Assembly: GCA_013214705.1 (NCBI GenBank)
Contig: JABSRZ010000003.1
Coordinates: 465,443 to 529,442 of the forward strand
Direction of reading: 5' to 3'
Length of the DNA stretch: 64,000 nt
Source of the DNA: Hyphomicrobiales bacterium
GTDB taxonomy: Bacteria; Pseudomonadota; Alphaproteobacteria; Rhizobiales; OSC116
A program made the translations under genes and the position numbers. The first letter of the stretch is position 1. Each line of letters begins with the position of its first letter. Positions 17,992 to 50,798 of the stretch are shown in pieces. The notes under the pieces are model-generated. The model ran no database searches. It saw only the letters and a program-made list of their open reading frames with translations, and was not told the DNA's origin.

Positions 17992-18102
17992 TGGTGCACC
18001 CGACGAGATTCGAACTCATGACCTCTGCCTTCGGAGGGCAGCTTAAGCTATTATAGACATTAAATACATACCCACCTAACGCTCTGATATATAATGTCGT
18101 AG
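17992..18102 (-). repeat. Attachment-site repeat 1 (tRNA-Arg 3' half plus element flank)
   Basis: 17992-18042 is identical to the 3' part of tRNA-Arg(CCG), including the anticodon-stem side, T-arm, acceptor and CCA. 18043-18102 is a flank shared with the copies at 26271 and 29618 (CCACCTAACGCTCTGATATA core) but not with the intact tRNA. It is the outer end of the island array. Confidence 0.88.
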
Positions 18103-18156
18103 AAGTATCAATTCAAATGCTGGACTATATCTGCGCTCAGATGCATTTCATAATTG

Positions 18157-20517
18157 CTAGTTCAACGGTACAGAAAAGCTCACGGATCCGCCGAAGCTGG
18201 TTGAAGATTTGCCGATACCGCCATACAGAACATTCAGAGCCAGTTTAACGCCGCCGATGGTGTAAATGTCAACGCCAGCACTCGCCGAAGCACTGAGCCC
18301 GGTCATGTTGGCAGCGAACGACCCTGGAACACCAGTCGCACCGAAGGAATAAACGCCCGTCAAGGAGGCCCAGGGGGTCAGATTGGTGCCGTCTTCAAGC
18401 GTATGAGAGTAGCTCACGCGCGGCGCAAACCGCAAATCGCCTTGAGAATTGCTCTGACCCGGAATCAAATTGCCAAGACCATCGACATAGGCGTGTCGGT
18501 TTTCCTCGATGAATTGCACGGATAAAACAGGCCACAGAATCCAGTCACCAATGTCAAACGCGTCTATCAAAGCTCCAGAGACCATCCACCGATCGGTTCC
18601 AAACTCGTCCGAATAGGTGCCAAAAGGGCTGGCGGTGTTATTCGATTGCCCCCAAGACGCGCTCAGGTCGATGTAAAAGCTATCGTCCAGTTTGACCAAG
18701 GCATAGGGCCCCACCATCCAGCCGACACCTTCAATTTGGCCAATGCCACCTAAAAACTGCTGTTGCATCCAGTCCATTTGCGCTTGAACGCCTAACAATA
18801 CATTAGGTGAGGCCAGATAGTCCACTCCTATCGAAGCAAGACCAAAAAACCCGCCATCTGTGGCCTGATCATCGAACCAGATCAAACTGCCTGTCGACCA
18901 GATGTCCCATGAGCTGATGTTAGGGCCTACCTGCACGGCTTCACCGGCAAAATTCGAGAGAGTTGCGGAATAGGCCATCAGGTCTTTACTAATGTGAATG
19001 TCCATCGGCCACGGAATATGTGGACTAAACCCCAGAAAACTCGCGCTGGCCGAACCTTGGGATGATGGCGTGCCATTAATTCTATTTATCCGACGGCCCG
19101 GATCACGCTGATTGGAAAGTAACAAGGAATTCCGCGCGCCGCTGAATTCGGAAATAATTTGCTGCGTCGCCGCAATATTATCGTTGCGTACAATCACAGG
19201 AACAGCTGCATCGCTGAGATTGCCCGATCCATCATACGCCGCACCGGCATTGACCCCGATCACAACATCACCCGCGCTGGTTGGTATGATGAGCGCAGTG
19301 TAAACGGAAGTAATTGTCGCGGAAAATCCAGACGCGGTCGCATTCGACAAAGCCGCCGAAATGTCGCTCAGATCAAAGCCAGTAACGGCTTCATTAAACG
19401 TGAAGGACAACGAAAACGGTGTGACGCCAGTAAATTGAGCAGGCGCGTCGGTGATCTCAACGGACGCCCCGGCAACGTCCTCGACAACAAAATCAGTGAC
19501 GGTCACAGCGATGTTGATGACATCGGTCAGTGCACCGGCATCGGTGACTGTGACCTGCACTTCATAGATACCGTCCAAACCACTGTCGGTGGGTGTTTCA
19601 AAATCTGGTGCAGCCCTGAAAGTCAGCACACCGCCGTCGCCATCGATGTCAAATTTACCTTGATCGGCGCCGCCAGTCAGCGCATAGGTCAGTCCGGATG
19701 CTTCTGAACTTGCATCATCCGTCGTCGCCAGATCGGTGACCGCGGTTTGGTTTTCGGCCGCGTTTACGCTCGCCGCTGCCGCGTTGGCGGGCACTATGAT
19801 CGTTGGCGCTGTATTGGCCAGTACTGTATTTGATGCCACTGAATTTGAGTTACCTGCTGCATCGGTGAAGGCACCGACGCCAACAGACAAAGCAACGGCA
19901 CCATCCGCAATAGGTGTCAAAACAGCCGTGTAGCTTGAACCCGGTCCAGAAAGAGTTGCGGTTGCATTCGTAAGCGTAAGATCGCCAACTACAAAGTCAG
20001 TACTGTCCTCGGACAATGCAACCACGGCGGTTTGTAGACCGGTTACAACGCCAGTAAAACCGGCAATGCTCACTATCGGGGCGGTGATATCAGCTGAAAT
20101 TCCTTTGGCCAAAATCCAGAATCCAAAAGCAGAATTGTTCGCATCACTAAATATTTGTAGGGTAGCTGAACTGTGCCCGACATAATCCGGATCAAACTGA
20201 ATGGTCAGGTTAGCGGTCCCTCCCGGTAAAATAGTCATCGAGGTCGGCGTTAAGATAGAAAACTTTGTTGGCGTATATACTATAGAGATATCTGTAATAT
20301 TAAGCGGCACAGCGCTTGGATTGGTAATCACAAATGTCCGGTCCACAATTCCACCGAACACAGGAGTTCCACCAAAATCGGTGCCGTTAGCGATCGACAC
20401 CGTGATATCATTATACCCAATCACCTGACCATTGCCCGTTAGGTTGATCTCAGGCAAACCTTGTGCATTGGCACTCGAGCTGCCAAACCCGCCAAGAAAT
20501 GAAAACAAGGAGTGCAA
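18157..20517 (-). CDS. Autotransporter-like surface protein with Ig-type repeats
   Basis: A 786-residue exported protein. In order: a region ending SSANAQG that looks like a signal-peptidase site; an ASPM/Hydin-like (choice-of-anchor D) domain at about 45-140; an Ig-like repeat at about 145-235; a cadherin-like domain at about 240-345; a second Ig-like repeat at about 355-440; and a C-terminal autotransporter beta-barrel from about 530 to the terminal FSVPLN. The hydrophobic part of the signal peptide seems to lie in another frame upstream (20450-20692, ending near VFIFWHIALLVF), so the N-terminus looks frameshifted near 20490. GC is visibly higher than the neighbours, which points to transfer. 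It is cargo of island 1. Confidence 0.8.
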   Translation of the reverse strand: MHSLFSFLGGFGSSSANAQGLPEINLTGNGQVIGYNDITVSIANGTDFGGTPVFGGIVDRTFVITNPSAVPLNITDISIVYTPTKFSILTPTSMTILPGGTANLTIQFDPDYVGHSSATLQIFSDANNSAFGFWILAKGISADITAPIVSIAGFTGVVTGLQTAVVALSEDSTDFVVGDLTLTNATATLSGPGSSYTAVLTPIADGAVALSVGVGAFTDAAGNSNSVASNTVLANTAPTIIVPANAAAASVNAAENQTAVTDLATTDDASSEASGLTYALTGGADQGKFDIDGDGGVLTFRAAPDFETPTDSGLDGIYEVQVTVTDAGALTDVINIAVTVTDFVVEDVAGASVEITDAPAQFTGVTPFSLSFTFNEAVTGFDLSDISAALSNATASGFSATITSVYTALIIPTSAGDVVIGVNAGAAYDGSGNLSDAAVPVIVRNDNIAATQQIISEFSGARNSLLLSNQRDPGRRINRINGTPSSQGSASASFLGFSPHIPWPMDIHISKDLMAYSATLSNFAGEAVQVGPNISSWDIWSTGSLIWFDDQATDGGFFGLASIGVDYLASPNVLLGVQAQMDWMQQQFLGGIGQIEGVGWMVGPYALVKLDDSFYIDLSASWGQSNNTASPFGTYSDEFGTDRWMVSGALIDAFDIGDWILWPVLSVQFIEENRHAYVDGLGNLIPGQSNSQGDLRFAPRVSYSHTLEDGTNLTPWASLTGVYSFGATGVPGSFAANMTGLSASASAGVDIYTIGGVKLALNVLYGGIGKSSTSFGGSVSFSVPLN

Positions 20518-20692
20518 TGTGCCAAAAAATAAACACGCCTTTTTTCCACCGGCCCAAGATACCGGTATCTACGCGCTCAATAGCCTGTGGTTTTTCTATG
20601 GGTTTTGGCAAAGTTATATCAACGGACGTCGGTGTAAATTTCGTCTTGGTAATGAAGTTTGAACTCGATGAACCGTTTAACAGGTTATACAT

Positions 20693-20934
20693 ATGCGCAA
20701 CCTGATTTGATACGACCCGTCTGAAGCGATTATTTGATCGAAATATTTACTGAACTCTGTCTTGCACATTTTTGGACTTAAATCACATCTCGGCACAATG
20801 TTTGCCTAATATTGAACCCAACGCGCCGTATGGTTATGCTGTATCATACTCAAATTTGCAATACATATTAAGTAAAACTCTATAGTAAAACAATGTAGTT
20901 CGCCGTCTGTTCAGCTACGCTTTAATATAACGCT
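20693..20934. other. Intergenic upstream of the Ig-repeat autotransporter
   Basis: 242 bases with the presumed promoter of the autotransporter. No other element was recognised. Confidence 0.35.
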
Positions 20935-50618: not shown

Positions 50619-50636
50619 TAATCAATTCCTTTTAGC

Positions 50637-50655
50637 TGTGGCAGGATTGTGGCAG
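50637..50655 (+). promoter_or_regulatory. Putative integrase arm-type sites (integrase end)
   Basis: Two perfect TGTGGCAG words with an 11-base period, between the integrase gene and the attachment site. They match the pairs at 26448 and 29794. Confidence 0.6.
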
Positions 50656-50721
50656 AACATATTTATTGGGAATAATAGCTTTTAGCCTAAACCATATCTC
50701 ATTGATATATTTAGGTAATTT

Positions 50722-50798
50722 TGGTGCACCCGACGAGATTCGAACTCATGACCTCTGCCTTCGGAGGGCAGCGCTCTATCCAGCTGAGCTACGGGTGC
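50722..50798 (-). tRNA. tRNA-Arg (anticodon CCG)
   Basis: A complete cloverleaf on the minus strand. The acceptor GCACCCG pairs with CGGGTGC, and the anticodon stem CTGCC/GGCAG holds the loop CTCCGAA, anticodon CCG. The T-arm is ATGAG-TTCGAAT-CTCGT, and CCA is encoded. It is the attachment gene of the island array; integration restored its 3' end. Confidence 0.96.

What the first reader, a model, noticed from the sequence alone, without database searches (positions are those of the whole stretch)
17992..50798. Three tandem genomic islands in one tRNA-Arg(CCG) gene
Seen directly: the 3' half of the intact tRNA (50722-50798) recurs at 17992, 26271 and 29618, each followed by about 60 bases of shared foreign flank. 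Established: tyrosine integrases use tRNA 3' ends. Inference: three related elements integrated in succession, giving islands of about 8.3, 3.3 and 21.1 kb. Only the last keeps an integrase, so the older two may be mobilisable in trans or as one unit.
Basis: partly seen in the sequence, partly recalled or inferred. Interest (0 to 1): 0.82.

Follow-up and report, generated by a model that had tools for sequence, protein, structure and literature searches.

The report
Tandem islands at one tRNA gene
Three foreign DNA segments sit end to end beside one arginine tRNA gene of a marine alphaproteobacterium, and only the one next to the tRNA (a defence island) still carries the enzyme that moves it; the arrangement is real and well preserved, but it is a known kind of structure.

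Summary
The 3' half of tRNA-Arg(CCG) (50722-50798, minus strand) recurs at 17992, 26271 (one mismatch) and 29618. It marks islands of 8,279, 3,347 and 21,104 bp, and only the last has an integrase.

New here: the shared flank is an integrase attachment arm. A paired site, TGNCACA-N4-TGNCACA, lies between tRNA-Arg(CCG) and the integrase gene in three related elements from other Hyphomicrobiales families. In the window it occurs only at 50637 (integrase side) and 26448 (island 2), letter for letter the same. Island 3's left arm (29794) has one mismatch; island 1's arm has lost it. Islands 1 and 2 lack the site at their right ends.

Best reading: successive integration (accretion). Island 3 (type I restriction and other defence-like genes) is probably still excisable, alone or together with island 2 in cis; island 1 is probably stranded. 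Trans-mobilisation of islands 1 and 2 is less likely.

Integrase-less ends of the same family also occur elsewhere in this genome and in two congeners. This matches described tandem islands with cis-mobilisable elements (Streptococcus CIMEs, Dehalococcoides ssrA islands): a new member of a known kind. Excision was not testable, and no clean empty site was found.

The parts
50722..50798 (-). tRNA-Arg(CCG), intact; the attachment target. Its 3' 51 nt (50722-50772) is the core
17992..18042 (-). displaced tRNA 3' half, left boundary of island 1
18043..18100 (-). truncated attachment arm of island 1; the arm-type site is lost
17992..26270 (.). island 1 (8,279 bp): autotransporter (18157-20517), AraC regulator (21167-22186), DUF4386 (22329-23012), NmrA-like (23009-23881), HTH and HipA (24476-26148)
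26271..26323 (-). displaced tRNA 3' half with one mismatch, boundary of islands 1 and 2
26324..26491 (-). complete attachment arm of island 2, with the arm-type site TGCCACAATCCTGCCACA at 26448-26465
26271..29617 (.). island 2 (3,347 bp): one long gene, CHASE hybrid histidine kinase (26750-28990, +); absent from five congeners at DNA level
29618..29668 (-). displaced tRNA 3' half, boundary of islands 2 and 3
29669..29831 (-). left attachment arm of island 3; arm-type site at 29794 with one mismatch
29618..50721 (.). island 3 (21,104 bp): autotransporter (30029-32620), cell-wall hydrolase (33285-33737), type I restriction-modification and other defence-like genes, integrase
34091..36715 (-). 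restriction-system-associated AAA ATPase (TIGR04435, 35129-36715) and a partner weakly similar to PtuB-type proteins (34091-35128)
36712..43236 (-). type I restriction-modification: hsdS (36712-38361), hsdM (38358-39818), hsdR (39856-43236)
43243..44175 (-). GIY-YIG/DUF4357 protein, PADLOC candidate PDC-S14
46165..48580 (-). HNH / endonuclease VII-like (46165-46647) and ResIII-like ATPase (46634-48580)
49611..50618 (-). tyrosine integrase, 335 aa; R199, K224, H287, R290, H313 and Y322 invariant among four homologues
50637..50654 (-). integrase-side arm-type site TGCCACAATCCTGCCACA, identical to the island 2 site

Best explanation
This is an accretion array. Separate elements of one integrase family entered the 3' half of tRNA-Arg(CCG) one after another, each rebuilding the tRNA and leaving a displaced copy of its 3' half; the crossover probably lies in the anticodon loop. 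Island 3, next to the tRNA, is an integrative defence island with an intact integrase and arm-type sites on both sides. It can probably excise alone (29618 with 50722), or with island 2 as one 24.45-kb unit (26271 with 50722), because island 2 keeps a perfect arm-type site. Island 2 is best described as a cis-mobilisable remnant. Island 1 has lost its arm-type site and is probably fixed. Shown: cores, arms, integrase, conserved arm-type site. Inferred: order of entry, binding, excision, transfer.
For: Core copies are far beyond chance. Arms are shared beyond the core and fall into two lineages, {island 2, C7, G002, G003} and {island 3, C10}: 66-92% within, 46-68% across. TGNCACA-N4-TGNCACA occurs once in each of three related elements (G102, G011, G041), between tRNA-Arg(CCG) and the integrase start, and in the window only at 26448 and 50637; shuffled windows gave none. 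Related integrases lie beside tRNA-Arg(CCG) in other families. Catalytic residues are conserved. The core-to-site distance is equal in islands 2 and 3. Island 2 cargo is absent from congeners at DNA level. The same tRNA holds other elements in congeners: a type I RM/GmrSD island with an integrase in G001, a serine recombinase in G004.
Against: No relative with an uninterrupted version of this locus was found; genes left of 17992 are not linked to the tRNA in congeners. Islands 1 and 2 have no arm-type site at their right ends and no integrase remnant, so it is unproven that they were ever complete elements. In G102 the distal copy is a whole tRNA and no second paired site was seen. The paired site was not found in stretches read from G060, G073 and G114. 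The genome is a 45-contig draft and the repeat junctions were not checked with reads.
Confidence: 0.75

Rival explanations
1. Cassette-like non-autonomous elements. Islands 1 and 2, and the ytoQ units on other contigs, never had an integrase; each is core, cargo and one arm, and is moved in trans by a cognate integrase.
For: The genome has one close integrase of this family but eight full or partial arms on four contigs. Arms abut a ytoQ gene in three species, with different genes on the other side. There is no integrase remnant in islands 1 and 2.
Against: Islands 1 and 2 have no arm-type site on their right side, which lambda-type integration normally needs (general knowledge). The ytoQ junction is the same in all three genomes and could be one old event. 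Several dispersed arms are truncated.
Confidence: 0.12
2. One-step arrival. The three islands came together as one composite element that had been assembled in another host, and only the outermost sites (17992 and 50722) were used here.
For: Transfer of CIME-ICE composites is documented (PMC5704250). None of the array is seen in congeners.
Against: The outermost arm (island 1) has lost its arm-type site, so it would have had to decay after arrival.
Confidence: 0.1
3. Rearrangement rather than integration. Copies of the tRNA 3' half and arm were spread by insertion sequences or homologous recombination.
For: IS3-like ends lie in all three islands, two of them facing each other across the 29618 junction. 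Arm copies lie at non-tRNA places on C10, C7 and C18.
Against: All copies have the same orientation and the same core edge, and the arms belong to two lineages. The core with arms is what an integrase reaction leaves behind.
Confidence: 0.03

Closest known systems
CIME / tandem accretion (ICESt1-related elements of Streptococcus thermophilus; review PMC5704250)
   Same: Tandem elements in one integration site, only one with an integrase; the others keep attachment sites and may move in cis
   Different: Islands 1 and 2 lack the integrase-side arm; the site is tRNA-Arg(CCG) of an alphaproteobacterium; no conjugation genes recognised; excision untested
Dehalococcoides ssrA genomic islands (PMC3146451)
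   Same: Several tandem islands downstream of one RNA gene, bounded by 3'-end repeats; some with and some without an integration module
   Different: Those use a serine recombinase and a 20-bp repeat of ssrA; here a tyrosine integrase and a 51-nt tRNA repeat with a conserved arm
tRNA/tmRNA genomic islands as catalogued in Islander (PMC4383910)
   Same: Regenerated tRNA and displaced 3' fragment mark the ends; tyrosine integrase next to the tRNA
   Different: Three in a row, with two lineages of arms
Tycheposons and other marine tRNA-targeted elements (named as satellites in PMC11389934)
   Same: Marine host, tyrosine recombinase, tRNA target, cargo genes
   Different: No packaging or tycheposon hallmark was tested; resemblance only

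Membership tests
tRNA-targeted genomic island (tyrosine integrase class) | intact tRNA at one end, displaced 3' fragment at the other | tested here: met
tRNA-targeted genomic island (tyrosine integrase class) | tyrosine integrase beside the tRNA | tested here: met
   met for island 3 only: 49611-50618, catalytic residues conserved
CIME in an accretion array | no integrase or transfer genes of its own | tested here: met
   islands 1 and 2
CIME in an accretion array | attL and attR both retained | tested here: inconclusive
   cores present on both sides, but no arm-type site at the right ends, and island 1 lost the left one
CIME in an accretion array | excision or transfer with the neighbouring element | not testable with these tools
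   needs PCR or reads
ICE / IME | relaxase, oriT or mating-pore genes | tested here: not met
   no relaxase or secretion family in the ORFs scanned; oriT not tested
prophage or phage satellite | phage structural or packaging genes | tested here: not met
   none in the ORFs scanned; endolysin-like and repressor-like hits only
integron / CALIN | attC hairpin sites and an IntI integrase | tested here: inconclusive
   integron-integrase model far below its cut-off; attC folding not tested

The most novel reading that the evidence does not exclude
A lineage-specific family of integrase-less units (one tRNA-Arg 3' half, one conserved arm of about 190 bp, one to a few genes) that spreads through these genomes in trans under a single tyrosine integrase, working like a cassette system built on a tRNA gene.
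Probability: 0.12. Interest if true: 0.65.

Novelty: new member of a known kind. Interest (0 to 1): 0.35.

Why it matters
It gives a clean example of accretion in a poorly studied marine alphaproteobacterial lineage, with two arm lineages in one array and a conserved arm-type motif that predicts which segments can still move. That makes a general question testable: how integrase-less segments stay mobile beside a working integrase. It also shows tRNA-Arg(CCG) as a recurrent site for defence islands in this genus (restriction islands at the same tRNA here and in G001).

Tried and rejected
A degenerate arm pattern over the species genomes gave five loci: two are congeners (NORP83 and BB6 MAGs), three are chance by profile score; viral contigs gave none. 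The 12-nt D-arm match at 29467 was considered as a tRNA 5' remnant and rejected as chance level. Repeats D3/D4/D7 were considered as part of the attachment system; D4 was set aside as IS3-like ends, D3/D7 lie upstream of the two autotransporter genes, whose proteins are not alike by BLASTP. The C42 core copy lies near a different, truncated integrase with an Arm-DNA-bind_3 domain. The search for an empty site through the left-flank genes found them on other contigs in congeners. No close integrase relative was found in viral contigs; phage and plasmid relatives are mostly below 40% identity among the best listed. The duplicated non-coding units near 49 kb had no Rfam match and no clear counterpart near homologous ATPases. 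Structure prediction was not used, since a fold would not bear on the question.

Full report
Observation. The window holds one tRNA gene, tRNA-Arg(CCG) at 50722-50798 on the minus strand, also found by Rfam. Its 3' half recurs in the same orientation at 17992, 26271 (one mismatch) and 29618, with no match expected by chance. Direct reading gives 51 identical nt at copies 1 and 3 and 53 nt with one mismatch at copy 2. On the island side of each copy a flank is shared at 88-96% identity. In islands 2 and 3 a profile of this arm extends to about 180 nt. The intervals are 8,279, 3,347 and 21,104 bp.

Where it is. The window is part of a 954-kb contig of a 3.5-Mb, 45-contig draft. The lineage is therefore a Hyphomicrobiales / OCS116-type alphaproteobacterium; the species itself is not named by the tools.

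Contents. Island 1 has an autotransporter, an AraC regulator, a DUF4386 protein, an NmrA-like protein and an HTH/HipA pair. Island 2 has one long gene, a CHASE hybrid histidine kinase. Island 3 has an autotransporter, a cell-wall hydrolase, a type I restriction-modification system with a restriction-associated AAA ATPase (TIGR04435) and a partner weakly similar to PtuB, a GIY-YIG/DUF4357 protein (PADLOC candidate PDC-S14), an HNH protein, a ResIII-like ATPase and the integrase. No relaxase, secretion or phage structural family appeared in the ORFs scanned.

What the flank is. At the integrase-proximal end, two tandem 11-bp repeats lie between the tRNA and the integrase start: TGCCACAATCCTGCCACA at 50637. 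Three elements with related integrases (G102 43%, G011 35%, G041 51% over a fragment) also lie at tRNA-Arg(CCG), and each has the same pattern, TGNCACA-N4-TGNCACA, at the same place and nowhere else in the stretch read. Not every related integrase showed it: none was found in the stretches read from G060, G073 or G114. In the window the strict pattern occurs only at 50637 and at 26448 in island 2, letter for letter the same; island 3's left arm at 29794 has one mismatch. Shuffled windows gave none. The core-to-site distance is equal in islands 2 and 3. I therefore read it as the integrase's arm-type site. That it binds integrase is inference, from this conservation and from how lambda-type integrases work in general.

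State of each island. Island 3 has the site on both sides and an integrase whose catalytic residues are conserved. Island 2 has it at the left but not at the right end; island 1 has lost it at the left and lacks it at the right. A search that reads through stops finds no integrase remnant in islands 1 or 2. Prediction: island 3 alone, or islands 2 and 3 together (26271-50721, 24.45 kb), can excise; island 1 cannot. This favours movement in cis over movement in trans.

Separate elements or duplication? The arms fall into two lineages: island 2 with C7 and with congeners G002 and G003, and island 3 with C10. This speaks for separate elements. The own genome has further integrase-less ends: C10 (two, around a ytoQ gene), C7 (one with a diverged tRNA-Arg 3' half, one beside a broken ytoQ) and C18; C42 has a core only. 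In G002 and G003 an arm also abuts ytoQ, with different genes on the other side. These could be old ends of the same family or a trans-mobilised set; the data do not decide.

The site as a hotspot. In congeners the right flank of the tRNA is conserved while the 3' side differs. G001 has a type I restriction/GmrSD island with a primase-polymerase and an integrase; in G004 a serine recombinase ORF reads across the tRNA. Across 121 genomes, nearly all of the same order, a number have a second partial core within 100 kb on the same contig (my reading of the table), so tRNA-Arg(CCG) appears to be used repeatedly. No clean empty version of this locus was found, because the left-flank genes lie elsewhere in congeners.

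Comparison with known systems. Tandem islands with and without integration genes at one RNA gene are described: CIMEs and accretion in streptococci (PMC5704250) and ssrA islands of Dehalococcoides, where 15 islands lack the integration module (PMC3146451). The present array works like these. Strict CIME membership is inconclusive, because the right-hand arm is missing and excision is untested.

Verdict. Real, well marked and mostly explained by known biology. New member of a known kind; interest 0.35.

Noticed in passing
window 48580-49611: About 1 kb without a long ORF between the ResIII-like ATPase and the integrase holds two tandem non-coding units: an identical 28-nt repeat at 48667 and 49273 and a second repeat at 49004 and 49458. 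On the minus strand both fold into an 11-bp stem (z -1.8 and -2.1). No Rfam match.
   Followed up: partly
L008 (contig C10 24514-25474), L010 (contig C7 30780-31180), L091 1-522, L092 3469-4212: A ytoQ gene (nucleoside deoxyribosyltransferase family) lies against an arm of this element family in three species, at one identical junction, GCTGCCCT followed by unrelated sequence; in C10 arms lie on both sides of it.
   Followed up: partly
L092 3243-3359 and 6245-6355: In G003 a repeat of about 117 bp that includes the 3' end of tRNA-Met(CAT) bounds a 3-kb segment containing the arm and ytoQ: probably a small island at a second tRNA.
   Followed up: partly
L093 3-1427: In G004 a serine recombinase ORF (Resolvase and zinc ribbon domains) reads straight across the tRNA-Arg(CCG) gene in antisense, recalling DsiB overlapping attL in Dehalococcoides.
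   Followed up: yes
L094 3229-16436: In G001 the same tRNA-Arg(CCG) is followed by a different restriction island: GmrSD, type I RM, primase-polymerase/AAA protein and a tyrosine integrase.
   Followed up: partly
window 24061, 29154, 29994, 32718, 33048: Short dispersed repeats resemble the left end of an IS3-like element (naming by eye) ahead of a transposase-like reading frame on contig C7; two of them face each other across the 29618 junction.
   Followed up: partly
L117 8313-11075: In G011 the related integrase at tRNA-Arg(CCG) is followed by a HipB/HipA-like pair (named by eye) and a homologue of the island 3 ATPase: cargo that in the window is split between islands 1 and 3.
   Followed up: partly
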